IMG/VR virus record: IMGVR_UViG_3300028590_000074
Span: 1 to 28,081 of that record
Strand: one strand, 5' to 3'
Length of the DNA stretch: 28,081 nt
DNA from: a virus
Under the pieces are notes generated by a model. It was not told where the DNA came from and made no database searches. It worked only from the letters and a program-made list of their open reading frames with translations. The translations under genes were made by a program, and so were the position numbers. Below are positions 3,118 through 26,720 of the stretch, piece by piece; the first letter of the stretch is position 1, and each line of letters begins with the position of its first letter.

Positions 3118-3777
3118 TCATGCCGCGGTGAGTACAAGCGTTGCAAGCGCATGCGCAGCGTTCCCACCAGGGTTGTAGGCAGCGGGGTCTTCCGTCGTTC
3201 CGACCACGCTTTTCACAGCACTGAAAGACTGAAACCGCCCAGAAACTTGGAAGTCCAGTGCGTACCCGGCCGGGGCTGACGCCGTGGCGAATGAACCGGC
3301 GAAAGCGCCTACAACGATGCACGCAGAAGGCGAGGCGGCCGGGATGCTGCCAACGCTCGGAGGGTTTGCAGTGTTGGAACCGGGTGCCGCAAAAGCGGCT
3401 GATGCCGATCGGACAACTGCCACGTTTCTTACTGCGTAGCTGTTGGCGTTGATGCCGTTCGAGGCGCCAAAGGTAAGCCGGAGAGCATCGCCTCCACCAC
3501 CTGCCGCCACTTTCGTCGCAACCCACAGGAGGCGCGTGCCACCAGTGGCCGCTAGATTGGCCCTGACCGTCCACCCAGTGCCTGACACCCCAGTGTCGAT
3601 CCCGATCGACGGAGCATTGGTTGTGCCAAGAGCTACGACGATGATGTCGCCCGCAGCTGCGGCGGGCATACTGATGTTGTGCACCGAAGCTGCGCCAGCT
3701 ACAGTCGAAACATCGTCGACGATGAGGGGGCCGACCCCTGCCGTCATCTTTGCGCTGGCTACGATTCCCGGTATCAC
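3118..3777 (-). CDS. Putative tail fibre or receptor-tip protein
   Basis: 219 residues, rich in Ala, Gly, Ser, Thr and Val, with a repetitive beta-strand pattern and no membrane segment or signal. I do not recognise a named family, but similar low-charge proteins are common as tail-tip or particle-surface components. Its ATG overlaps the stop of the 3774-4481 gene as ATGA, and it is the last tail gene before the lysis cassette, the place where host-range proteins usually sit. Host recognition is inference from position and composition. Confidence 0.6.
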   Translation of the reverse strand: MIPGIVASAKMTAGVGPLIVDDVSTVAGAASVHNISMPAAAAGDIIVVALGTTNAPSIGIDTGVSGTGWTVRANLAATGGTRLLWVATKVAAGGGGDALRLTFGASNGINANSYAVRNVAVVRSASAAFAAPGSNTANPPSVGSIPAASPSACIVVGAFAGSFATASAPAGYALDFQVSGRFQSFSAVKSVVGTTEDPAAYNPGGNAAHALATLVLTAA

Positions 3778-4481
3778 AGCGGCTCCGTCGAACCGAACAC
3801 GTCGGCCACGCTGCTTGAGACGAATTTCACCGTCACCGTGTCGCCCGGCTCCAGCACCAACGTGCCTCCCTTTGGCGGATTGAGCGTGACACCTGAGCCG
3901 GACAATGTCAGGTTGCCCGAGGCGCCTCGATTGGCGACGTGGTACTCCTCGGGGGCCGCGAAGCCGTCGCCGACGTCGAAAGTGCCCGTCTTCGCGCCAG
4001 TCGCCGTGAAACGCACGTAAGAGCCAGCATCGCTCGGATCGAAGGCCCGAGCTGCCGTGGCGTCAGTGATGAGAGGGGCGGCAGAACCCCCTCCACCGCC
4101 TCCATCCGCTTGGCCATGAACGCCACCGGGGCCACCACGGCAATCTCGGATCACCGTGGGGACGCCGCCTGCCGTGGTGATGTGGAACACCCGCGCATAG
4201 TCGACCAGGTTGTTCCAGTTGGTCATGCTGGTGGAAGTCGTCATCGCGCCTGTGGAACGCGCCACCACGAGGTAGTTCTCCGCTGAGTTGGTCAGCGTAA
4301 GCGTGCCGTCAACGATGTCGAATCCGCCCCATCTCGCACCACCGAGATACCCCCATGTGAGTGCTGCGCTGGTGGCCGGGTCACGCCCATAGACCTGCTG
4401 GTGCGCCAGGATGTCCAGCGCCTCGTTGACGATGGGAAATGGATCAGCGGGATTCCCGCCTGGTACGCGCGGAGCGCTCAT
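3774..4481 (-). CDS. Putative tail fibre protein downstream of the hub gene
   Basis: 235 residues. The N-terminal part (PADPFPIVNEALDILAHQQVYGRDP) is helical and may dock to the tail tip. A Gly-rich linker near 120-133 (DGGGGGGSA) separates it from a beta-rich C-terminal part (about 140-235) that ends in VTVKFVSSSVADVFG, resembling the end domains of fibre or spike proteins. It overlaps both neighbours by ATGA, right after the large hub gene, the usual slot for fibres. The split at the Gly linker suggests two modules that may be exchanged separately. Confidence 0.62.
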   Translation of the reverse strand: MSAPRVPGGNPADPFPIVNEALDILAHQQVYGRDPATSAALTWGYLGGARWGGFDIVDGTLTLTNSAENYLVVARSTGAMTTSTSMTNWNNLVDYARVFHITTAGGVPTVIRDCRGGPGGVHGQADGGGGGGSAAPLITDATAARAFDPSDAGSYVRFTATGAKTGTFDVGDGFAAPEEYHVANRGASGNLTLSGSGVTLNPPKGGTLVLEPGDTVTVKFVSSSVADVFGSTEPL

Positions 4482-7474
4482 GGTGCTGATGTCTCCAAAG
4501 TGGCGGCGAATCCCTCGCCAACGGTGTCCGAGAGTTGCTGTGCGGTGATCGTGATGAGGTCGCCGCTGGTGAATCCGTCAGCGGCAATCTCGGCCGCCGA
4601 ATACGTCCATTCGAGATCGGTGTCGTTGTGCGTCCGCACGAGGCTCAAGCCGTCGTAGACCTTGAAGCGGAAGGCCGCCAGGGTCTCACCCAGCGGCGCG
4701 AACGTGCCGGTGGTGGTGTACCGGGCCACCAGACGCGATCGGCGACCCGCCGACACCTCCAGGTCGCCGCCAGCGTTGGCGTGAGCTCGAAGGCGCCAAG
4801 GGCTGTAAGGCATCAGCGAGATGCCGCTGTCGGCGAACTCCTCCTCGATCACCGAGGACAGCAGCAGGTTGAGGGTCACCGCCTTGACTTGCTGCTCCAC
4901 GCCGATGTCGGTGGTCTCATTGACCATCCGGCGCAACATCGAGTCAAGCAGAACGAAGCGCGCCCCCGATGGGTGCTCGACGATCTTGTGCTCTTGACCA
5001 AGCTGACCGCGCAGGAACTGCGAGAGGTCATAGATGCGGTACAGGCCATCGTTGCCGACGAAATCGGCATGCACGAAACGCAACGGCTCGTCCCCGATGA
5101 CAGCAGCGTTGATGGTGCGGTCGACCGCCATGTCGGCAAGTGTCGAGCTGCTCAACTCGCCGCGGACGCGAACGCGAACCTTGCCGCTGTGCTGGAGAGA
5201 CCAGCTACCTCCTGCATGGCTAGCAAGCGCCGTGGTTGTCTCGCCGATCACTGCGGAGTCACCCGTGATGAACTCCTGTTCATAGGCTTCGGGAAGCCGT
5301 GCGCGCACGAACACTGCCCCTGGCCATTCGTCCGCCGCGCTGGATCGGCCAGGGGTGATGGCGACGTAGGGCCCAGGGGCATCGGCGTCAGCGTCACGCA
5401 GCGCAGGGATGTTGACCGTCTGCCACTCTGTCGGGGCAATGAGCACCGGTTCCGCCGGCACGTAGCCCTCGTAGGTTGGGTCGGGCGGATTGAGCACGCT
5501 GGCGTCATCAAGCGCGCAATCCCATTCGATCACCACCAGCGAATCGCGCTTCGTGATGACGCGCAACCTGTAGGTGCGACCCTGCGGATTGGTTGTCGTA
5601 ATGATCTGACCAGGTTGCACCCTGGCGTACTTGCGACCGCCCACACGCAGCGTCACACGCCCGAGGCCGGCCATGAGATCGAGCAGCATCGAGGTAACGG
5701 TGTTCTTGGCTTGCGCTGGCGTCATGCCAAAGGCCATCTCCACCACCCTCGTGCTCACCATGCTGCTGTCGATACGATCGCTGAACTCCGTGCCAACTGC
5801 GTAGTCGGCATGGGCGTTGCGATAGCGCAGCGCGATCTGCGCCGGCAACTCGCTCTCGTTCCCTTGCACCAACGGGAACGGTTCACCGGGGTCGGCATCT
5901 TCGTTGGCGCCCAGGTCACTCCAATCGACCGCCATGACGGGCACCGTGGCGCGCGGAGAGATGTAGAGCCTGTCGGTGCAGAACGCCTCGTACTTGGCGT
6001 AGGGTCGAAGTGTCTCCAGGTGCGCCCGCGTGCCGCTCACATCGCCTGTTGCATAGCCCTCCAGTGGCACGTCGTACAGATCCTCGTGCACCTGAAACTC
6101 ATTGGGCATGTAGCCCGCGCGGACCAGAAGCGCATCGACAGTCGCCTTGACGTTGGTTTCGAGCGTAGGCTGATAGACCGGGTCCGTGCCGTATCCACAA
6201 TAGAGACGCGAGAGTCGAAACGAGGCAAAGATGGCGCCGCGCATGTCAGTCACACCAACGGCGCCGAATGCCCAGGATCTGCTCCCGACCGCCAGAGCAT
6301 TGGGCGAAACGACCGTCATGAACAGGCTGTTGTCGACGTAGATCTCCATCGTGTGCAACGTGCCCGCCGGGAAGACGATTCCCAATCGGCCAGTCAATGG
6401 AAGGTTCGTCGCAACAACTTCAGGCTCAGGCAAGTTGAGGCGATGCCAAACCAGATCAAAGCTGGCGCCTGGGTTTGAAACGGAGTCGTGATCCCGAATG
6501 GAAAGCCTGTGGGAGTTCAGCCCATCGCTGAAGATCCAGAACTGAGTTGCTCCATTGGCGTAAGTCGGACCGCCCACGGGGGAGCGGATCTCCATGTCGA
6601 AAAAGTTGTAGTCGAGCGCGATGTATCGGTCGGTGGTGGCGAAGTCATGTGCGACGTCAAAGTCGCCACCGTCCGCCGGAAACTGGAATCGCGTTTGTCC
6701 GCCGTTTGGAAACGACCACTGAAGTTCGACGCCGGTCGTCTTAAAGTCCAGCGACGTGAACACGCCGCTCGCACTCGGCGTTGCGTTCTGAGCGGGAGGA
6801 AGCTGATCGCCGAGCTCCGTCACATTGGTCAACGGCATGTATATCCGCGCACCCGATAGATCAATTCCGGAAACGGTGTTGGCCTGGTGCTCCAGGTTCG
6901 GAATCTGCTTTCCATTGGTCAACTGCAGACCCGTGATGACGATGCTTGTTCGGCCGCGGTATGCCGGCGCATTGCCCACGCCCACCGCCGCTTCATAGGT
7001 CGGGTCCGGCAATTGATCGTCCGCTCCTGTGTAGACGACGTAGGAGGCCCAAATGCCTTCCTTGGTCGTGACTTCACTGCGCACGAGCTCGGCATTGAGC
7101 CAGTCACGAGCCACGTCGGTAGTCACGTTCTCGGAAAGCAGGATCATGACGTCACACTCGTAGGTGAACGTCGTGTACTTGCTGCCACCGCCCTTCCCTA
7201 CTTTCTTTCGCTGAGCGATTTCGCGCACGGGGCTGGCCCAGACAATCTGCCCCGTCAAGCGCGGCTTACCAGCCAGCCAAGGCACTGCCTGGCCATAGGC
7301 CGTTCCAATGATGTTGCGATCCTCCAGGCGCGGGCCCTGCTGGTTGCTGCCGCCCATGGCCGACGAGAGGAGCGAGCCCGCCATGAAGCCCCAGGAGGCG
7401 TATGAAATGCCCCAGAGCCCGCCAGTGAAGAACGAGCCGATGGCCGCGCCGATGTAGGGAAGAGCCTCAGACAT
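4478..7474 (-). CDS. Large tail-tip/hub protein (GTA-type 'megatron', gpJ-like role)
   Basis: 998 residues from the ATG at 7474, which overlaps the NlpC/P60 stop by eight bases. Residues 1-45 are hydrophobic and Gly-rich. Residues about 50-200 (RLEDRNIIGTAYGQAVPWLAGK, then AYRGRTSIVITGLQL.NGKQIPNLE) and about 440-680 (VDALLVRAGY, GYATGDVSG, RVGGRKYARVQPGQII) match the layout of the phage tail protein family that includes RcGTA gp15. Between them, about 205-430, lies an extra beta-rich block that looks like a LamG/concanavalin-type fold. The C-terminal third is beta-rich. It should form the base of the tail tip and contact the cell surface. The exact fold of the insert is inference. Confidence 0.85.
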   Translation of the reverse strand: MSEALPYIGAAIGSFFTGGLWGISYASWGFMAGSLLSSAMGGSNQQGPRLEDRNIIGTAYGQAVPWLAGKPRLTGQIVWASPVREIAQRKKVGKGGGSKYTTFTYECDVMILLSENVTTDVARDWLNAELVRSEVTTKEGIWASYVVYTGADDQLPDPTYEAAVGVGNAPAYRGRTSIVITGLQLTNGKQIPNLEHQANTVSGIDLSGARIYMPLTNVTELGDQLPPAQNATPSASGVFTSLDFKTTGVELQWSFPNGGQTRFQFPADGGDFDVAHDFATTDRYIALDYNFFDMEIRSPVGGPTYANGATQFWIFSDGLNSHRLSIRDHDSVSNPGASFDLVWHRLNLPEPEVVATNLPLTGRLGIVFPAGTLHTMEIYVDNSLFMTVVSPNALAVGSRSWAFGAVGVTDMRGAIFASFRLSRLYCGYGTDPVYQPTLETNVKATVDALLVRAGYMPNEFQVHEDLYDVPLEGYATGDVSGTRAHLETLRPYAKYEAFCTDRLYISPRATVPVMAVDWSDLGANEDADPGEPFPLVQGNESELPAQIALRYRNAHADYAVGTEFSDRIDSSMVSTRVVEMAFGMTPAQAKNTVTSMLLDLMAGLGRVTLRVGGRKYARVQPGQIITTTNPQGRTYRLRVITKRDSLVVIEWDCALDDASVLNPPDPTYEGYVPAEPVLIAPTEWQTVNIPALRDADADAPGPYVAITPGRSSAADEWPGAVFVRARLPEAYEQEFITGDSAVIGETTTALASHAGGSWSLQHSGKVRVRVRGELSSSTLADMAVDRTINAAVIGDEPLRFVHADFVGNDGLYRIYDLSQFLRGQLGQEHKIVEHPSGARFVLLDSMLRRMVNETTDIGVEQQVKAVTLNLLLSSVIEEEFADSGISLMPYSPWRLRAHANAGGDLEVSAGRRSRLVARYTTTGTFAPLGETLAAFRFKVYDGLSLVRTHNDTDLEWTYSAAEIAADGFTSGDLITITAQQLSDTVGEGFAATLETSAP

Positions 7475-18893: not shown

Positions 18894-19199
18894 TCAGGCA
18901 CCTCCGGTCTTGATGTACCGATAAAGCGACCGGCGGCTGATGCCGTGGCGCGAGGTGATGGCGTCGTCACTCTCAGCACTGCCGATCGCGTCGTCGAACA
19001 CCGCGCGCCGCTGCTCGGGCGACGGGTGTTTTTTTCGCTTGGGAATGCGCACGCGCAGGCCACCGTATTCGGCTTTAATGGCGACTTCGATCACCTGGGC
19101 CTGTTCGTCTGTGAGGCCCGGGTTGACGTCGCGCACGCGCTGCAGCACCAGCAGAACGATGTCGGGCCCGGTGCCGTCGGTCTCGGCGCTGCGGCTCAT
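18894..19199 (-). CDS. Mor/C-family-like transcription activator
   Basis: 101 residues. It has a Mor-type core (DEQAQVIEVAIKAEYGGLRVRIPKRKK at about 31-57) with the GGLRVRIPK block that is typical of Mu Mor relatives, followed by a helix-turn-helix of roughly 77-98 (SDDAITSRHGISRRSLYRYIK). Mor proteins switch on middle or late promoters by binding dyad sites and contacting RNA polymerase. The gene lies between large terminase and gpW, an unexpected place for a regulator. Its stop is followed at once by the 21-bp repeat. It overlaps the terminase stop by ATGA. The DNA target is not known. Confidence 0.78.
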   Translation of the reverse strand: MSRSAETDGTGPDIVLLVLQRVRDVNPGLTDEQAQVIEVAIKAEYGGLRVRIPKRKKHPSPEQRRAVFDDAIGSAESDDAITSRHGISRRSLYRYIKTGGA

Positions 19200-21259
19200 T
19201 TTCGGAACCTCCCGCCGCCACCGAGCGAGATCTTCCCGTCAACGATGGAGGGCGCCACTGCCGGGCGAGAGGGTACTGGATTCGGTCTAGGTGCCTGCGG
19301 TGCAGCGCGATTGCCGATGGGTTCGACTATCGGCGCGCCGTTCTGCTTGGCTTCCAGTTCGCCCTGCTGTGGATCCTGCGATGTCTCGGGCTGATCGACT
19401 GGATCGAACAAGTCACCGATGGTGGGAACCAGGCGGTCGCGCAACAACTGCCAGGCGTGTTCGCTCTTCTTATGCAGGCCCAGCATCATGGCGGCAGCCA
19501 CGTTGTAGACGGTAAGGTCCAGCGGTTCGTTAGGCTCGCCCTTCTTCTGTTCCCACCAACTGACCTTGCGGCCGCGCTTGAAACCGCTGGTGCGGTACTC
19601 GGCCACCAGCCCCTTAAACCAACTCTCGGGCAGGTCTTGGCTGAAGTGGATGGCACCAGGGCCTTGCATAAACTTCCAGCGCGCCTGCAGGTAGTCCTTA
19701 GCCGTGTCAGTTCCGATGATCCACAGTTGCGGGCCGCGGCGCTCGGTCTTGCCCCTCTTGTCCACGCCGACGTTGCTGGGCTTGTTACCGATGATGGGGC
19801 GGTTCTTTTTGTTGGCGTCGCCCTTGATGGCGAAGACGTTGCGGTGGCGGCGCGCTTGGGTGAAGTTGTAGACCTCTTGCGTGTGGTGTCCACCGGAGTC
19901 GACAAAGGCGGCACTTACGTTGAGGCGGCAGCCGCTGGCGTGGCGGTAACGGCCTTTAAGCAGTTCGTCGGCCTTGTCCCATGTAGCTTTGCTGGCCGGA
20001 TCTCCATGGATGATCTGATAGTCCACCACCCAGCCTTCCATGCCCTCGCCCCATGCAATGACCTGGAATTCCAGGCGGTAGGCCTGCACGTCGATGGCGG
20101 CGGTGAGGACGAGCCCGCCGGCCGGCACGGTGGTCAGGCGGTACGGTTCGGCGCGAGCCATCAGCCCTTCATAGCGCGTCGTCTCTTTGCTTCGCGCCCA
20201 GCACTTGGCCAAGCGTGTGTTGTAGAAGACGATCATGCTGGTGTCGTCGCCCTCCTCCAGCTTGGCCTTGGCCTTGTGATACTGCTTGAGCAGCGAAATC
20301 CAAGGGAGCCAACCGTAGGGGAGGAACATGGCCGAGGCTTGGAAGCTTTCGGTCTCACCGTCACCCGGGACGCCATCGCTCCATAGACCACGCGCGAACA
20401 TCCGGGTTTTGTCCCCCTCGCCGTGCAGCCCGCCGCACTCACTGCAGGGGTAGAACGCTTCCTTGCCATCATCGCTGGCGATCAAGCACGGTTCGCCGTC
20501 CTTGGTGAAGAAGTCAAGCGGTTGGGCGTGGCCGCAGTGAATGCACTCCGCCAAGGCGACTCGCTGGGTGCCGCGCTCGTACAAGGTCTGGATCGGGCTT
20601 TCGCCTTCGATGGTCGGTGAGCTGGGGTAGTAGGTCTTACGGTCCCGCTCGTGGCTGGTCATGCGGGTTTCCAACAATTCGTCGGGCGAGCCTTCACCGC
20701 CCACGTTGTCCTTGGATCGGTCGATCTCGTCGAATACGCCGTAAGTCGCCGACAGTTCCGAAAGGTTGGCTGCGGCACCGGCGCTTGCGATGTACAGCGC
20801 ACCGCCCGGATAGGCCTTGATGTCGTTGTTGTTGGTCGCCACGCGAGATGCCGGACGGGCGAAGCGCTCGCGCAGCACTTGGGTGGCAGCCACCACCTTG
20901 TCGATGCGGGCGGCCGCGCGCTTGTGCAGCTTGCCGGTAGGCACTACCCAGATAAAGTTGCGTGGGCGCTGGTGCACAGTCTCGCCCAGAAAATTCAGAC
21001 CAACCTGGCTCTTGAACATCTGGGAAGCAACCATGGCCGCTACGCGCTTGCACGGGTGGTCAGCACTGAGGGCACGCATCACCGCGCCGGCATGCGGCGT
21101 ACGCGACGTTTTGTAGCGACCCGGCTCGCTCGCGCCGGTCTCCTTCGGCACCACCATGTTGTCGTCAGCCCAGACCTCCACCGACTTGTTCGAGTCCGGT
21201 TCGATGCCACGCGCGAACGCGTCGAGCAGCAAGTAGTAACCGTCGTGCAGGTCGTTCAA
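19196..21259 (-). CDS. Terminase large subunit, lambda gpA family
   Basis: 687 residues from a TTG at 21259 that overlaps the small-subunit stop as TTGA. The GGAGG ribosome site four bases before the TTG decides the start; the open frame upstream to 21352 lies in the small-subunit gene. The ATPase part has a deviating Walker A near Lys83 (SQMFKSQVG) and Walker B VFDEID at 175-180. A CxxC pair at 239/242 and another at 272/275 suggest a zinc knuckle. The nuclease part has Asp390 (AAIDVQ) and Asp454 (FVDSGG). It should cut concatemers and drive packaging. GpA-type enzymes work at cos sites. The C-terminal 90 residues are Pro/Gln-rich and probably bind the portal. Confidence 0.95.
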   Translation of the reverse strand: MNDLHDGYYLLLDAFARGIEPDSNKSVEVWADDNMVVPKETGASEPGRYKTSRTPHAGAVMRALSADHPCKRVAAMVASQMFKSQVGLNFLGETVHQRPRNFIWVVPTGKLHKRAAARIDKVVAATQVLRERFARPASRVATNNNDIKAYPGGALYIASAGAAANLSELSATYGVFDEIDRSKDNVGGEGSPDELLETRMTSHERDRKTYYPSSPTIEGESPIQTLYERGTQRVALAECIHCGHAQPLDFFTKDGEPCLIASDDGKEAFYPCSECGGLHGEGDKTRMFARGLWSDGVPGDGETESFQASAMFLPYGWLPWISLLKQYHKAKAKLEEGDDTSMIVFYNTRLAKCWARSKETTRYEGLMARAEPYRLTTVPAGGLVLTAAIDVQAYRLEFQVIAWGEGMEGWVVDYQIIHGDPASKATWDKADELLKGRYRHASGCRLNVSAAFVDSGGHHTQEVYNFTQARRHRNVFAIKGDANKKNRPIIGNKPSNVGVDKRGKTERRGPQLWIIGTDTAKDYLQARWKFMQGPGAIHFSQDLPESWFKGLVAEYRTSGFKRGRKVSWWEQKKGEPNEPLDLTVYNVAAAMMLGLHKKSEHAWQLLRDRLVPTIGDLFDPVDQPETSQDPQQGELEAKQNGAPIVEPIGNRAAPQAPRPNPVPSRPAVAPSIVDGKISLGGGGRFRK

Positions 21260-21867
21260 TCGGCCTCCACCTTTACGCCAAGCTTCTCGCGCAGGCGCTG
21301 AGCCAGCATCAGTTGGATGGTGCGGTTGTGCTGGCGCAGGACCTTGGCGCAAGCGTCCGCGTTTTCGAGCACCGCCACTTCGGCGGCGAGGGTGTTGACG
21401 GACGAGTCCATAGCGTCGCGCAGTTCGCGGGCAATGTCGAAGCCGCCTCGATTGATGTCGGCCACGTCCCTCACCTCTGCACGCTTGCGAGCCAGATCCA
21501 GCTCGGCAAGCGCAGCATTGGCGTTCTCGGTGCGCACACGTGCGGCGGTGTAGCCGTCTGGTGCCACAGCAGCTGCAGCGAGCACGGCCGGCGCCTGGAC
21601 GCCATCACCGGCCGCCGTCAGCAGGTCTCCACCGGCTTCGGATACGTGTCCACCACCATCGGTGGCGCCGATCCGAGCGCGGGTGTTGCGCGCCCACTGG
21701 CTGTCGGCCAATGCCAGGTCCACCAGTTTGTCCGGCCCGAACGCGCTGATGCGCCCCGCGTCAACCGCCTTGCGTACCGCCTCACGCGACGCGCCGGGCA
21801 GCCCGCGCTCTGCGCGCGACCGCGCGTACTCCGCCTGTGTCAACAGGTTCGGGTCACTTTTGGCCAT
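21256..21867 (-). CDS. Terminase small subunit (Nu1-like)
   Basis: 203 residues. The N-terminal part has a winged-helix-type DNA-binding pattern (LLTQAEYARSRAERGLPGASREAVRKAVDAGRI with the following FGPDKLVD) as in Nu1 homologues, and an Ala-rich region leads to a C-terminal coiled-coil (ENANAALAELDLARKRAEVRDV...) that should contact the large subunit. It would recognise the cos region, probably the 132-bp gap just upstream. It is coupled to the large subunit by TTGA overlap. Confidence 0.88.
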   Translation of the reverse strand: MAKSDPNLLTQAEYARSRAERGLPGASREAVRKAVDAGRISAFGPDKLVDLALADSQWARNTRARIGATDGGGHVSEAGGDLLTAAGDGVQAPAVLAAAAVAPDGYTAARVRTENANAALAELDLARKRAEVRDVADINRGGFDIARELRDAMDSSVNTLAAEVAVLENADACAKVLRQHNRTIQLMLAQRLREKLGVKVEAD

Positions 21868-21999
21868 GTGTCAACCCGCGTGTCAACATTTCCCGGGCCG
21901 GATTTCTAGCGCGATTTCGCGATCGTTTCGCCCCGTATGAGACGGGCGCACGGAAGGACCCGAACGGGGGGTGGGGGGTCGGGAGAGTGGGGTGCATGG
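21868..21999. other. Gap before terminase: candidate cos region with G-rich tract
   Basis: 132 bp without a gene, directly upstream of the small-terminase start and after the gpZ-like stop. It has a hairpin-forming CCCGT-ATGAG-ACGGG (21932-21946), an interrupted dyad GACCC/GGGTC (21957-21961 and 21976-21980), and between the arms of that dyad a very G-rich stretch GGGGGGTGGGGGG (21966-21978). Four G tracts between 21966 and 21992 meet the pattern of a G-quadruplex. Lambda-type terminases act at a cos site located just before nu1, so this is the best cos candidate; the cut position cannot be seen. Confidence 0.5.
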
Positions 22000-22602
22000 T
22001 CAGCGCGCGTTGAACTTCGAGACGTAGAAACGGGCTTCGCTCGCGAAGATGGTGGGGAAGCGGGCGCGGATCGTGCCGACCACCGCGCGGTTGATTCGCT
22101 TCTGGTTGAACATCTGGGCTACATCGATCGTGCTCACAGCCTTGATGGGCAAGCGATCCTTGCCCGTGCGGATGAAGACGGTGCGTCCCTTGTTCCCGAT
22201 GAATGCGCCGGTGATGATCTTCTTGCCACCGGTCTTGCGGACCTGGAAACGGAGCTGGTTGAGCGTGCCTTCCTTGCCGCGCTTGCGCGCCTGGGCAAGG
22301 CTCACCGAGCGTTCGAGGAACGCAATCATGTTCGAGCTGCGCTTCTTGCCATTGCCACCAATCAACTCGGCAGTGAAGCTGAACTGGCCTGCCCTGAAAG
22401 CGGCGCGCTTGAGGCGCAGCCGCTCCCGGACATAGGCCGAGGTAACGCGGTACTCCGAGGTGATCTCCCGGCCCATCTGAGTCTGTGCCTGGGCCATGGT
22501 CTTGTTCATGGCTGAGACCAAGGCCCGACCGCCAATGTCGGAACGCAGCTGCCGCAAGGACCGCTGCACTTCGGGGAAGTTGGTCTTGAAGTCCAGCTTC
22601 AT
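22000..22602 (-). CDS. Prophage minor tail protein Z-like (gpZ family)
   Basis: 200 residues from the ATG at 22602, which overlaps the upstream stop as ATGA. The family pattern is visible: MKLDFKTNFPEVQRSLRQL, ALVSAMNKTMAQAQTQMGREITSEYRVTSAYVRERL, then basic Lys/Gly-rich segments and VFIRTGKDRLPIKAVSTIDVAQMF near the end. In lambda gpZ is needed to position the DNA end in the tail connector. In lambda Z lies between FII and U; here that slot is empty and the gene is the second of the late group, next to the terminase genes. Confidence 0.85.
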   Translation of the reverse strand: MKLDFKTNFPEVQRSLRQLRSDIGGRALVSAMNKTMAQAQTQMGREITSEYRVTSAYVRERLRLKRAAFRAGQFSFTAELIGGNGKKRSSNMIAFLERSVSLAQARKRGKEGTLNQLRFQVRKTGGKKIITGAFIGNKGRTVFIRTGKDRLPIKAVSTIDVAQMFNQKRINRAVVGTIRARFPTIFASEARFYVSKFNAR

Positions 22603-22895
22603 GGTTCGTCCCGCCCCCACGGAGACCGCAGCCCAATGGACCGTCCGCCCTCTTCCGCAAAGAACGTGCAGCGATGGCCGTGCACCAGATGCCACCGTGC
22701 CGCCACATCCGCACCCTGCGCCTGCAACACGGCGGCATGCTCACGCCTGGCCTGTTGAGCCTTGGCCATTTGCGCATCCACCATGTCGCTGCCGTAGGCC
22801 TCCCTGCAGAGGTCGACAAACGCGGCCACCGCAGGCATGGCTTGGCGCCGCGCCGCGTTTGGCGCCGTCCGTTCGATCGACTGCTCATCCTTCAT
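22599..22895 (-). CDS. Small uncharacterised protein at the head of the late genes
   Basis: 98 residues from an ATG at 22895 with an AGGA/GAG ribosome site a few bases upstream. It is helix-rich (Ala, Arg, Glu, Gln), with one Cys in the first half and HGHRCTFFAEEGG near the end. I do not recognise the family. It overlaps the gpZ-like gene by four bases and is the first gene left of the iteron array. Tight coupling suggests that it is expressed, but no function can be named. Confidence 0.65.
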   Translation of the reverse strand: MKDEQSIERTAPNAARRQAMPAVAAFVDLCREAYGSDMVDAQMAKAQQARREHAAVLQAQGADVAARWHLVHGHRCTFFAEEGGRSIGLRSPWGRDEP

Positions 22896-22932
22896 AACTC
22901 TTCCTTTTTTTTGAGAGAGAAACCAGAGTGGT

Positions 22933-23138
22933 GTTACGCGTGCGCGCGACCGTGTTGCGCCTGGAGCCCGCGTCGTTACGTGCGTTACGCTCGTTACGGG
23001 GGGTGTGCGTTACGCACATGCGCACGCGCCTGCACGCACATGGGTATGCGCGCACATGTACAGGGAGGTGGCGTAACACGCGTAACGCACGTAACGACGC
23101 GGGTTTGCGGCGCATCGGCGTTACGCTGAGTGCGTAAC
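22933..23138. repeat. GTTACG iteron array with a 24-bp perfect inverted repeat
   Basis: Ten copies of GTTACG lie in about 206 bp: forward at 22933, 22975, 22984, 22993, 23009 and 23120, and inverted (CGTAAC) at 23072, 23081, 23090 and 23133. Three forward and three inverted copies have a strict 9-bp period and sit on the two arms of a perfect 24-bp inverted repeat (22967-22990 and 23080-23103). The loop is alternating purine-pyrimidine with three copies of CGCACATG (23013, 23035, 23051). A smaller perfect hairpin (GTTACGC-TGAGT-GCGTAAC) is at 23120-23138. It directly follows the helicase gene. A replication origin is the first guess. Confidence 0.85.
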
Positions 23139-23142
23139 AGGC

Positions 23143-24819
23143 TCATTTCTCACCCCCGGCTCTCTTGCCCGACGTGGGGGCGGGGGAGGATGTTCCATCG
23201 TCGGTTCCTGATCCACCTTCCCTGGTACGGAGAAAGCGGCTCAAGGCGACGTCGAAGGTGTCAACAGCACTGCCAGCCCACTCGCCTTCGGAGACACCGT
23301 TGCGCGGGCCGCAGTCGCGCGGTATCCAGCACCGCACGGACTTCCTGACGCTCGTGGCATCCACCAGGTTGATCACCTTGTAGGTGAGCACGGGTTCGAG
23401 CTTTCGGCCTTCCGAGTCCTTCTCAACTCTTTCGTCGGCCCATTTCCTGACCGTCGAGGTGAATTGCGCCTGGTTCGGGGCCCAGCGCTCGCCGGTGTTC
23501 TCTCCCCAACGGCGGAAGGCGCGGTACAGTTGCTCGGCCGAGCACACGGTCCTGGGCAGGTGCAGGTACCCGCCCATCCAGTCGAGCATGAAGCGCTCGC
23601 CCGGTTCCATGCTCAGCTCGATGAGGTCCTGCTTGGCCTGCGTCATGAGCGGCTTCGTGTGCTCGTGGAAGCCATCCAGCGGATAGTTCAGCAGATAGTG
23701 CATCCACTTGGCCGCGCCACCAGCTGCCAGGAAGGCCCGCACCGTGTCGTATAGCTTCCCGTCTTCGGGAATCGGGGTGTAGACGACGAGATGGCGCCGG
23801 TCATCCCGCTCCAGCGCGATCGGGATTTTCTCGTTCGAGAGAAACACCAGGTTCGCCCAGTTGGCTTCCCAGCGGGTGTCGGTGTGCATCGAGCGGATCG
23901 GGATACGCTCCGCGTCGATCATCCACTTCAGGCGGTTCTTGTTGTGAAACAGCTCCTGGCGGCTGACCACCTCATTGCAGACCACGATCTGCTTTGCCGA
24001 TATCCACGCGTTGTACTTTTCCTCGATCTCGGTCTGGCCGACCATCACGCCATAGCGCCCGTACATGTCGCGGACCACATCGAAGAAGAGGTTCTTACCG
24101 GTGCCCTGAGGCCCGTGGAACACCAGCGCAGTGGCCATCTTGGCACCTTGCTTCTGCAGGGGAAGCGCCAACCAGCACAACACCCAGTTCTTCACTTCGT
24201 CGACGCTGGTCACCGCGCCATCGCACCGGCTGCAGAGGTGATCGAGGAGCGCGAGCATGGGCTCAACATCCTTAGCCTCACAAGCCACCGGTTCGATGGC
24301 CAGGCCATTCCACAGGTTGATCGCGTCTTCACCGCATTGTTCGGTTGGGTCGAAAACAAGCTGCTCTTCGTCGACGCTCTTGCGGTCTGGCGAGGCCTTC
24401 CACATGCGCACGTAGTCCGCACCGAACATGTGAGCCATGTTGGACAGCTTCACGCTCTTGCGCTTTTCGCCATCCCAGGCCGTGTCGGTGGGGTAGATCA
24501 GCGTGAAGTTCTCAATGAGGCGCGTGTACTTTCCCCAATCGATCTTCTTTTTTGGCTTGCCACCATCGCCCGCGGCCTCCCCCCCCTTCCCCTTCGAAGA
24601 CGCGCTAGCGCTATCAGGGGAAGGGGGTGGAGAGGCCGAATTCGCGCCATCTGACGCACTGGAGCGCCTCTTCCGGCCCGCACTGAGCGGCAAGACATTG
24701 TTCAGTGGCGCTTCCGCGCCAGAGGCCAGGAAGGCGGCTTCTGGCGCTCCCAGCTCATCGCCCGCCGAGTCGTCGTCAGGCTCAACCGGTGGCAGGTGTG
24801 GGTCATCCGGTTCAGTCAC
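23143..24819 (-). CDS. Replicative helicase/primase-helicase (DUF5906-type, P-loop)
   Basis: 558 residues. The first 95 residues are a low-complexity Ser/Pro/Gly/Lys-rich linker. The ATPase core carries Walker A GPQGTGKN (236-243), Walker B-like IVVCNEV (278-284), a sensor VFLSNE (325-330) and an arginine-finger region ERDDRRHLVVY (337-347), in the order of SF3-like phage helicases next to primases. The C-terminal 120 residues include WAPNQAQFTSTVRKWADERV, possibly a winged helix for DNA binding. It overlaps the Toprim primase gene by eight bases; together they resemble the two halves of the P4 alpha protein. It should open the origin and load the replisome. Confidence 0.9.
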   Translation of the reverse strand: MTEPDDPHLPPVEPDDDSAGDELGAPEAAFLASGAEAPLNNVLPLSAGRKRRSSASDGANSASPPPSPDSASASSKGKGGEAAGDGGKPKKKIDWGKYTRLIENFTLIYPTDTAWDGEKRKSVKLSNMAHMFGADYVRMWKASPDRKSVDEEQLVFDPTEQCGEDAINLWNGLAIEPVACEAKDVEPMLALLDHLCSRCDGAVTSVDEVKNWVLCWLALPLQKQGAKMATALVFHGPQGTGKNLFFDVVRDMYGRYGVMVGQTEIEEKYNAWISAKQIVVCNEVVSRQELFHNKNRLKWMIDAERIPIRSMHTDTRWEANWANLVFLSNEKIPIALERDDRRHLVVYTPIPEDGKLYDTVRAFLAAGGAAKWMHYLLNYPLDGFHEHTKPLMTQAKQDLIELSMEPGERFMLDWMGGYLHLPRTVCSAEQLYRAFRRWGENTGERWAPNQAQFTSTVRKWADERVEKDSEGRKLEPVLTYKVINLVDATSVRKSVRCWIPRDCGPRNGVSEGEWAGSAVDTFDVALSRFLRTREGGSGTDDGTSSPAPTSGKRAGGEK

Positions 24820-25828
24820 TCAAGGCCTCCACGATGAGCGCCGTGACACGCTGCAGTTGGCGAGCAACGACGGAGAGGCCTTCGCGCTGGTGCAGGTCAT
24901 TGAAGTCGGTGTCCTTGAGCTGCCGCGTTCGCGCGTCGAACACCGGCCAGACGATCTCGCATGAATCCGTGTGCTTCGCCGCCAGGCGCGCACGCCTGCA
25001 GCCGGGATTCGGGCCCGCATGGTCGGTCGACTTCCAGTCGTCATCGGCGCAAATCAGAATGAACGCCTCGGGGTAGAGGCCGCGCAGCAGCTCCACTACC
25101 GCAGGCAAGTTGTAGGCATCGAGCGCCACGAACACGGGCCACTTCTTCTCCGTCGCCATGCGAATGGACAAGCCAGTGGCATAGCCTTCGCACACCAACA
25201 GCAGAAGGCTCTCCGGAGAGATTTCGCCCAATCGCACGCTGCAGCCGGTTTTTGCGAAGCCGGAGGTGAAGACCTTCTGCGGCAGCGGCTCGCCCGTCCG
25301 GCGATGCTTGCGCGGCCCGGGGTGGATACGCTGTACTGCACGCAACGCGTCCTCGCGCGGCAAGTCGTACCGCAACAATGGAATCAGGATCGATCCGTCG
25401 GGGAGATACCGGCATGCCTCGCCTTCCACCTGCTTGGACTTGAGATAGGCCGAGCTGCCGGTGCGAGATCCCGTGGCCCAGAGTTCGGCCGCGGAAAGGG
25501 CGGCTAGACGGGCCTCTTCGGCGCGCGCAGCGGCCTCGGCCCTCCGCGCTGCTTCGTGCTCCGCTTTCCGGCGCGCGCGCTCAGCCTCAGACAGCGGCGC
25601 CCAATCGACCTCGACCTTTTCGGACTTGCCGCTGCGCCAACTGCCAAACGTGCCAACCAGGTAGACCCCGCCGGCATCAGGGCGGAACTCGTACAGCTTG
25701 TACCAAGCCTTGCCCCCTACTCCGCAGGTTGTGCGCCGATTGAGGACAGGAAAGCGACTTCGGTCTTTCAAACGTAGGGCGATACCAAACTGCTCCATCT
25801 GATGGAGCACCTCTCGGTAGTTGTCCAT
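24812..25828 (-). CDS. Toprim-domain primase
   Basis: 338 residues. An N-terminal domain (about 1-75, with GKAWYKLYEF and GVYLVGTFGSWRSG) is followed by an Ala/Arg/Glu-rich helix (75-110). The Toprim domain has LLLVCEGYATGLSI (Glu214 as catalytic acid), FVALDAYN (236), LICADDDW (260-265) and the closing DTDFNDLH (306-313), the set seen in P4 alpha-like primases. It should make primers for phage replication together with the helicase. It starts one base overlapping the stop of the regulator gene (TGATG). No zinc finger is visible at the N-terminus. Confidence 0.92.
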   Translation of the reverse strand: MDNYREVLHQMEQFGIALRLKDRSRFPVLNRRTTCGVGGKAWYKLYEFRPDAGGVYLVGTFGSWRSGKSEKVEVDWAPLSEAERARRKAEHEAARRAEAAARAEEARLAALSAAELWATGSRTGSSAYLKSKQVEGEACRYLPDGSILIPLLRYDLPREDALRAVQRIHPGPRKHRRTGEPLPQKVFTSGFAKTGCSVRLGEISPESLLLLVCEGYATGLSIRMATEKKWPVFVALDAYNLPAVVELLRGLYPEAFILICADDDWKSTDHAGPNPGCRRARLAAKHTDSCEIVWPVFDARTRQLKDTDFNDLHQREGLSVVARQLQRVTALIVEALSD

Positions 25829-26477: not shown

Positions 26478-26720
26478 TCAGTCCTGCACGGCCTTTGCCT
26501 CTGCGAGCTCGGGCCAAATGAGGCGCCAACGATCTGGGAACACCTTTGTCCGCGCCAGCGCGCCACCCGTGAACGCCTCAAGCCGCGCACCGTGTTCGAC
26601 CGGAATCGGGCGTTCTCCGGTAGCCATCTTTGCAACAAATGAGGGGCTTACACCAAGGTGCCGGGCGAGACGAACCGCTCTCCCATGCTCTTCGGACAAC
26701 CATGTTTTCAGGAGTTCCAT
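26478..26720 (-). CDS. Cro-like repressor, YdaS-type helix-turn-helix
   Basis: 80 residues from the ATG at 26720; a start at 26738 would add six residues but lies inside the first operator. The domain fits the YdaS/Cro-like family: MELLKTWLSEEHGRAVRLARHLGVSPSFVAKMATGERPIPVEHGARLEAFTGGA, followed by RWRLIWPEL, the usual end of such short proteins. It is divergent from the CI-like gene and is the first gene of the long leftward operon, so it should turn the switch toward lytic growth. Neither start has a good ribosome site; a short leader is likely. Confidence 0.85.
   Translation of the reverse strand: MELLKTWLSEEHGRAVRLARHLGVSPSFVAKMATGERPIPVEHGARLEAFTGGALARTKVFPDRWRLIWPELAEAKAVQD

What the first reader, a model, noticed from the sequence alone, without database searches (positions are those of the whole stretch)
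22933..23138. Dense GTTACG array with mirrored 9-bp iterons: candidate phage replication origin
Ten hexamers in about 206 bp, three and three of them in phase on the arms of a perfect 24-bp inverted repeat, with a Z-DNA-prone loop that holds a second repeat (three CGCACATG). The array follows the helicase and primase genes directly. In P4 the alpha primase-helicase binds iterons at ori and crr, so a similar role is plausible, but the mirrored layout with 9-bp phasing is not a form I know. The same DNA is also transcribed in the long leftward operon, so a 24-bp RNA hairpin with RNase III or polarity effects is an alternative.
Basis: partly seen in the sequence, partly recalled or inferred. Interest (0 to 1): 0.75.

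Follow-up and report, generated by a model that had tools for sequence, protein, structure and literature searches.

The report
Mirrored-repeat phage replication origin beside helicase
Directly behind its DNA-unwinding helicase gene this phage carries a mirror-image cluster of short repeats that is very probably where copying of its DNA starts; related phages keep the same layout even when they have completely changed the repeat 'word', which makes it a good natural system for studying how an origin and its starter protein change together.

Summary
None of 1,000 shuffles matched this.

The element is not peculiar to this phage. It lies at the 3' end of the gene for a DUF5906/NrS-1-type SF3 helicase in nearly every relative examined: 97 non-redundant elements from Burkholderiales prophages and Stenotrophomonas, Pseudomonas, Halomonas, Moraxella, Bordetella and Nitratiruptor phages. 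The repeat word differs widely (GTTACG, GTCACG, GTTGCG, GTCCCG, GTGTTGGGT, TCAGACAG and others). The geometry stays: repeats point inward at the tract in 95 of 97.

Element similarity follows the helicase (partial r 0.63), not the terminase (0.06), which argues against cos/pac. Arm mismatches show no RNA-strand bias (G-U 344, A-C 333), which argues against an RNA hairpin.

Best reading: a replication origin. The adjacent helicase, whose C-terminal domain is predicted to be a winged helix, loads on both arms and melts the centre. It works like SaPI/PICI, SCCmec Cch2 and P4 origins, and re-reads the published BIP-1 'stem-loop' origin as mirrored iterons. Function is inferred; nothing was tested at the bench.

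The parts
22930..23142 (.). whole element (candidate origin), between the helicase stop codon and the next gene
   Evidence: conserved at this position in relatives
23143..24819 (-). SF3/D5-type helicase (DUF5906; NrS-1 C-terminal-region homologue), proposed initiator
   Evidence: Pfam DUF5906 E 1.7e-17; AF2 pLDDT 83.5; NrS-1 CTR Z 26.8, SaPI5 primase-helicase Z 18.7
23218..23628 (-). C-terminal domain of the helicase, predicted winged helix (proposed iteron reader)
   Evidence: AF2 pLDDT 93.6; structural matches are almost all winged-helix domains but at low Z (6.6 or less)
24812..25828 (-). TOPRIM primase, same operon
   Evidence: Toprim_3 E 2.2e-7; PHROG DNA primase E 4e-78
22956..22998 (+). 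arm distal to the helicase (43 nt), holds three iterons
   Evidence: (I1)
23072..23114 (-). arm proximal to the helicase (43 nt), holds three inverted iterons
   Evidence: (I1)
22933..22938 (+). iteron GTTACG (outer)
22975..22980 (+). iteron GTTACG
22984..22989 (+). iteron GTTACG
22993..22998 (+). iteron GTTACG
23009..23014 (+). iteron GTTACG inside the alternating tract
23072..23077 (-). iteron GTTACG
23081..23086 (-). iteron GTTACG
23090..23095 (-). iteron GTTACG
23120..23125 (+). iteron GTTACG (outer)
23133..23138 (-). iteron GTTACG (outer)
23003..23062 (.). alternating purine/pyrimidine (Z-prone) tract between the arms; proposed melting site
   Evidence: conserved in relatives
22967..22974 (.). 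CCCGCG box next to the inner iterons (second conserved motif, role unknown)
   Evidence: kept in relatives that changed the iteron word
23096..23103 (.). CCCGCG box, mirror copy
22599..22895 (-). 98-aa ORF following the element (function unknown; relatives in a few loci)
22000..22602 (-). minor tail protein Z homologue
   Evidence: PF06763 E 1e-10
21256..21867 (-). terminase small subunit
   Evidence: PHROG 57
19196..21352 (-). terminase large subunit, GpA type
   Evidence: PF05876 and PF20454

Best explanation
The element is the phage's replication origin. The SF3 helicase encoded directly upstream binds the GTTACG iterons through its C-terminal winged-helix domain. One set of subunits assembles on each mirrored arm, giving two helicase rings that face each other across the alternating purine/pyrimidine tract. 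The tract, rich in weakly stacked pyrimidine-purine steps and able to flip to Z-DNA under negative supercoiling, opens first. The primase of the same operon then primes the exposed strands, and replication runs in both directions. Shown here: the array, the mirror geometry, the inward orientation, the conserved place behind this helicase, co-inheritance with the helicase, and absence of RNA-type selection. Inferred: binding by the helicase, melting at the tract, bidirectional start.
For: (1) Place: in 86 loci that could be scored (mostly about 4-9 kb), the strongest inverted repeat of the whole locus lies at the helicase 3' end in 80, the strongest purine/pyrimidine alternation in 79, the strongest 6-mer repetition in 71. 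(2) Geometry: in 97 non-redundant elements the iterons point at the tract in 778 of 881 copies, as the majority in 95 loci and the minority in none. Spacings are mirrored and near whole helical turns: 9,9 with 21 or 42-43; 8,8 with 44 or 52. (3) The word changes at least 23 times on the helicase tree, and in both arms together, as expected for sites of one trans-acting protein. (4) Element similarity tracks the helicase (partial Mantel 0.63, 0/2000 permutations) and not the terminase (0.06, 488/2000), n=40. L006 has a 61% helicase, 30% terminase and a window-like element; L051 has an 87% terminase, 44% helicase and a different element. (5) In complete genomes the long words cluster only here: NrS-1 11/11, pAN 10/11. 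(6) The helicase is structurally nearest to NrS-1 CTR (Z 26.8), then SaPI5 primase-helicase (Z 18.7), AsfvPrimPol and D5. (7) Related systems with tested or biochemically supported origins directly 3' of an SF3/D5-type helicase: PICIs (PMC6092414), SCCmec Cch2, whose isolated C-terminal domain binds the repeats (PMC7581432), pRN1 (PMC4234260).
Against: No binding, replication or marker-frequency data. GC skew gave no origin signal. The winged-helix assignment rests on a prediction and on low-Z matches. NrS-1 has iterons but no alternating tract (score 8), so the tract is not universal. For NrS-1 the published guess for an origin is a different 8-nt priming site in mid-genome (PMC7102993), and no 8-mer of their test oligonucleotide falls in the array except TTTGACCA, which also occurs elsewhere. 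Word changes are frequent on the helicase tree, so the word by itself is only weakly tied to helicase phylogeny.
Confidence: 0.85

Rival explanations
1. The element is the packaging site (cos or pac) recognised by the terminase encoded 1.3 kb downstream.
For: It lies upstream of terminase genes in many loci; cos sites also carry repeated binding sites.
Against: Element similarity does not follow terminase similarity once helicase is accounted for. The distance to the large terminase gene varies from about 0.3 to over 3.5 kb while the distance to the helicase stop stays near zero. In H4907, pAN and Turba, lysis genes or other unrelated genes stand between element and terminase, and the linear pAN record begins just before TerS and ends just after the HNH gene, 2 kb from the element (whether these are physical ends was not checked).
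Confidence: 0.05
2. An RNA hairpin in the transcript (RNase III site, attenuator, antitermination signal).
For: The transcribed strand folds very stably (z -7.0).
Against: Arm mismatches are G-U 344 versus A-C 333 in 96 loci (p 0.70); selection on RNA pairing should favour G-U. Several loci keep iterons with poor pairing (L010, L028, L080: inverted-repeat score 9-10). No Rfam match.
Confidence: 0.04
3. A DNA cruciform or extruded hairpin is what is recognised, as proposed for pRN1 and BIP-1, and the iterons are incidental. This is still an origin, with a different recognition step.
For: Arms within a locus resemble each other more than the word alone requires (L013, L036, L042: inverted-repeat scores 40-59). 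The pRN1 stem-loop is essential (PMC4234260).
Against: Loci with poor arm pairing keep inward iterons; outer iterons also occur beyond the arms; [quoted passage not shown]
Confidence: 0.1
4. Operator array for a regulator or a partition (parS-like) site.
For: Iteron-like arrays can serve both.
Against: The place behind the helicase is constant and not at a promoter of the operon; co-inheritance is with the helicase; the integrases in annotated relatives point to chromosomal prophages. No partition gene was seen among the proteins scanned, but not all window ORFs were scanned.
Confidence: 0.05

Closest known systems
SaPI/PICI origins (Pri-Rep-ori)
   Same: Origin directly 3' of the initiator helicase gene; two sets of iterons flank a melting region; word differs between elements (PMC6092414); SaPI5 helicase is a structural relative.
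   Different: PICI centre is described as AT-rich, here an alternating purine/pyrimidine tract that is usually GC-rich; here iterons are mirrored and inward; the host is a tailed-phage genome with its own terminase and virion genes.
pRN1 plasmid and Bordetella phage BIP-1 'stem-loop' origin (PMC4234260)
   Same: For pRN1, a stem of 21 nt and loop of 58 nt downstream of the primase-helicase gene; structure conserved while sequence is not. BIP-1 has GCCTCGTTT repeats in both arms around CATACGTGTACATG.
   Different: The authors saw a stem-loop without iterons; here the arms are iteron arrays, which offers a simpler reading of BIP-1. pRN1 itself was not examined here.
SCCmec Cch2 origin (PMC7581432)
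   Same: D5-type helicase binds repeats downstream of its gene through its C-terminal domain.
   Different: Only three iterons, and the inverted repeats are not needed for binding.
P4 alpha with ori and crr
   Same: Primase-helicase with a winged helix binding iterons (cited in PMC4234260).
   Different: P4 needs a second site (crr; from memory); here complete relatives have one cluster only.
S. thermophilus phage Sfi21 origin (from memory, not found in the library)
   Same: Noncoding repeats next to the primase gene act as origin.
   Different: Not compared here.

Membership tests
PICI-type iteron origin (two iteron sets flanking a melting region 3' of the initiator) | located immediately 3' of the initiator helicase gene | tested here: met
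PICI-type iteron origin (two iteron sets flanking a melting region 3' of the initiator) | two sets of iterons flanking a central region | tested here: met
   778 of 881 copies in the expected orientation and side
PICI-type iteron origin (two iteron sets flanking a melting region 3' of the initiator) | AT-rich centre | tested here: not met
   tract GC median 0.67, locus median 0.65; AT-rich only in some relatives
PICI-type iteron origin (two iteron sets flanking a melting region 3' of the initiator) | drives autonomous replication with its helicase | not testable with these tools
   needs a plasmid test
SF3 / D5-NrS-1 helicase family (neighbouring gene) | DUF5906 domain and SF3 fold | tested here: met
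   47 of 47 relatives match DUF5906; Z 26.8 to NrS-1 CTR
SF3 / D5-NrS-1 helicase family (neighbouring gene) | C-terminal winged-helix DNA-binding domain | tested here: inconclusive
   AF2 model helix-helix-helix-strand-strand-helix; matches to winged helices at Z 6.6 or less
pRN1/BIP-1 stem-loop origin | long stem-loop directly 3' of the replication protein | tested here: met
pRN1/BIP-1 stem-loop origin | pairing itself is under selection | tested here: inconclusive
   no G-U excess, but selection on DNA pairing is not excluded
phage cos/pac site | co-varies with the terminase | tested here: not met
   partial r 0.06, 488/2000 permutations as high

The most novel reading that the evidence does not exclude
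A widespread class of temperate-phage origins uses a conserved alternating purine/pyrimidine tract, a left-handed (Z-DNA) switch, as its opening element in place of an AT-rich region, with two head-to-head SF3 helicase rings loaded from mirrored iteron arms whose word is repeatedly replaced.
Probability: 0.25. Interest if true: 0.8.

Novelty: new variant of a known kind. Interest (0 to 1): 0.62.

Why it matters
It gives phages of the DUF5906/NrS-1 helicase family a recognisable, testable origin. It reinterprets the BIP-1 stem-loop as mirrored iterons, and it shows that two annotated 'hypothetical genes' (S1 gp2, NrS-1 NRS1_29) overlap such elements. It offers dozens of natural initiator/origin pairs with different words for studying how specificity changes. 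The conserved alternating tract makes the question whether Z-prone DNA can serve as an origin-opening element directly testable.

Tried and rejected
GC skew of complete relatives: no usable signal. The 344-aa ORF 21854-22888, first used as a query, is out of frame with the real tail-protein gene and probably not a gene. Stenotrophomonas S1 at first looked like a counter-example with no gap behind the helicase; the element is there, under the annotated gp2. The NrS-1 priming site: a motif I recalled (TTTGGTTA) is not given in the paper, and the published oligonucleotide does not place the site in the element. More distant helicases (YuA, FZ14, AXL_3, Vibrio 1.111) have no such element behind them, so the class is limited. 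Matching the iteron word to residues of the predicted recognition helix was looked at by eye only and is not claimed. Rfam: nothing. A literature search for Z-DNA in phage iteron origins returned nothing. A direct structure search with the isolated C-terminal domain found no match at E below 0.001.

Full report
Observation. The segment 22930-23142 was checked letter by letter. It holds ten of the twelve GTTACG/CGTAAC copies of the 28 kb window. Three on each side are spaced by 9 bp in mirrored arms of 43 nt (37 paired; 24 bp without a mismatch, holding two iterons per arm), around a 60-bp tract in which 54 of 59 steps alternate between purine and pyrimidine. Of 1,000 dinucleotide shuffles of the segment none reached the iteron count, the repeated-6-mer count or the alternation score.

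Surroundings. The window is an IMG/VR phage record of 28,081 bases. Leftward in one operon-like row are a TOPRIM primase, a DUF5906 helicase, the element, a 98-aa ORF, a minor tail protein Z homologue, small terminase and GpA-type large terminase, then portal and head protease. Named hosts of the closest relatives in genome contigs are Burkholderiales: Ramlibacter, Hydrogenophaga, Variovorax, Methylibium, Comamonas, Acidovorax, Polaromonas.

Conservation. Relatives of the helicase (36-66% identical) were fetched from viral and genome contigs, and more distant ones from named phages. The DNA behind the helicase stop codon shows the same plan in nearly all of the first group and in several of the second. 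A scan that ignores position found the strongest inverted repeat of the whole locus at the helicase end in 80 of 86 loci, the strongest alternation in 79 and the strongest 6-mer repetition in 71; median alternation score there is 23.5, against a median of 8 and a maximum of 19 in 10,225 windows elsewhere. The loci were collected by helicase similarity and are not independent. Near-identical ones were dropped for the counts on 80 and 40 loci, and exact repeats only for the counts on 97 and 96.

The word changes, the plan stays. Most Burkholderiales elements use GTTACG, but others use GTCACG (L067, L073), GTTGCG (L044, L061, L077), CTTACG (L007), TTTACG (L070), GTCCCG (L041) or GAACGCGA (L053). 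Other phages use GTGTTGGGT (pAN, Turba), TCAGACAG (H4907), GTGCGGG (S1), GGTTAGGG (KT1), GTTACACTT (NrS-1) and GAGGCAAAC (BIP-1). Whatever the word, the copies on either side point at the tract: 778 of 881 copies in 97 elements. The spacing patterns are mirrored: 9,9 plus 21 or 42-43 in window-like elements, 8,8 plus 44 or 52 in the second type; S1 with another word has 9,9,43,12,9. These distances are near whole helical turns. At least 23 word changes are needed on the helicase tree.

Origin, not packaging site. Phage mosaicism separates helicase from terminase. Among 40 loci with both, element similarity correlates with helicase similarity after accounting for terminase (0.63; 0 of 2,000 permutations as high) and not the reverse (0.06; 488 of 2,000). 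In gammaproteobacterial phages, lysis or other unrelated genes separate element and terminase while the element stays at the helicase.

DNA, not RNA. The transcribed strand can fold well (z -7.0), but in 96 loci arm mismatches that RNA would tolerate (G-U, 344) are no commoner than their mirror class (A-C, 333; p 0.70). Some loci keep iterons with poor pairing (L010, L028, L080).

The likely initiator. The helicase model matches the NrS-1 polymerase C-terminal region (Z 26.8), the SaPI5 primase-helicase (18.7), AsfvPrimPol and poxvirus D5/E5, all SF3/D5 type. Its C-terminal domain, modelled alone (pLDDT 93.6), has winged-helix topology; structural matches are nearly all winged helices, several of them origin-binding ORC/Cdc6 domains, but at low Z (at most 6.6), so this is a strong hint, not proof. 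In SCCmec Cch2 the equivalent C-terminal region binds the repeats behind its gene (PMC7581432). In PICIs the origin behind the initiator has two iteron sets around an AT-rich region and was shown to work (PMC6092414). For pRN1 a 100-bp stem-loop behind the replication gene is essential, and the same authors drew a stem-loop for phage BIP-1 and found no iteron origin (PMC4234260); its arms contain GCCTCGTTT repeats around CATACGTGTACATG.

Mechanism proposed. Helicase subunits read the iterons of each arm, form two rings facing the tract, the tract opens, and the primase starts both strands. Steps after recognition are inference. The tract may act through weak stacking of its pyrimidine-purine steps, through a B-to-Z switch under supercoiling, or as a protein or primase site; the data do not decide. 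It is missing in NrS-1 and AT-rich (GC 0.17) in Moraxella Mcat7.

Novelty. Origins made of iterons behind an SF3/D5 helicase are known; this is a new variant, widespread in temperate phages, with mirror geometry and an alternating instead of an AT-rich centre. I found no description of it in the open-access papers searched; most subscription papers are not held.

Noticed in passing
L121 (Polaromonas sp. CF318), helicase ORF 3698-5467, N-terminal part: The helicase carries an N-terminal FtsK-gamma winged-helix domain (Pfam E 1.2e-23), an unusual fusion of a second DNA-binding domain to this helicase.
   Followed up: partly
L106 2454-2804 (Stenotrophomonas phage S1 gp2) and L129 17055-17456 (NrS-1 NRS1_29): Annotated hypothetical genes overlap the iteron element and may not be genes.
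   Followed up: partly
window 22967-22974 and 23096-23103; same place in most relatives: A second box (CCCGCG/CGCGGG; in the other element type AGCA..GGCGCGG) is kept when the iteron word changes; role unknown.
   Followed up: partly
window 21854-22888, - strand: 344-aa ORF is out of frame with the Minor_tail_Z gene and probably spurious; the real genes there are 22599-22895 and 22000-22602.
   Followed up: yes
L013, L036, L042 helicase 3' ends: The two arms of one locus share locus-specific changes, such as a GTTTCG in the same place on both arms of L013, more than the word alone requires; this suggests copying between arms or selection for DNA pairing.
   Followed up: partly
L099/L130 (BIP-1) about 26610-26712: The region has GAGGCAAAC repeats in both arms, about 0.5 kb beyond the stated end of the replication gene; whether it is exactly the stem-loop drawn in the paper could not be checked because the figure is not held.
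   Followed up: partly
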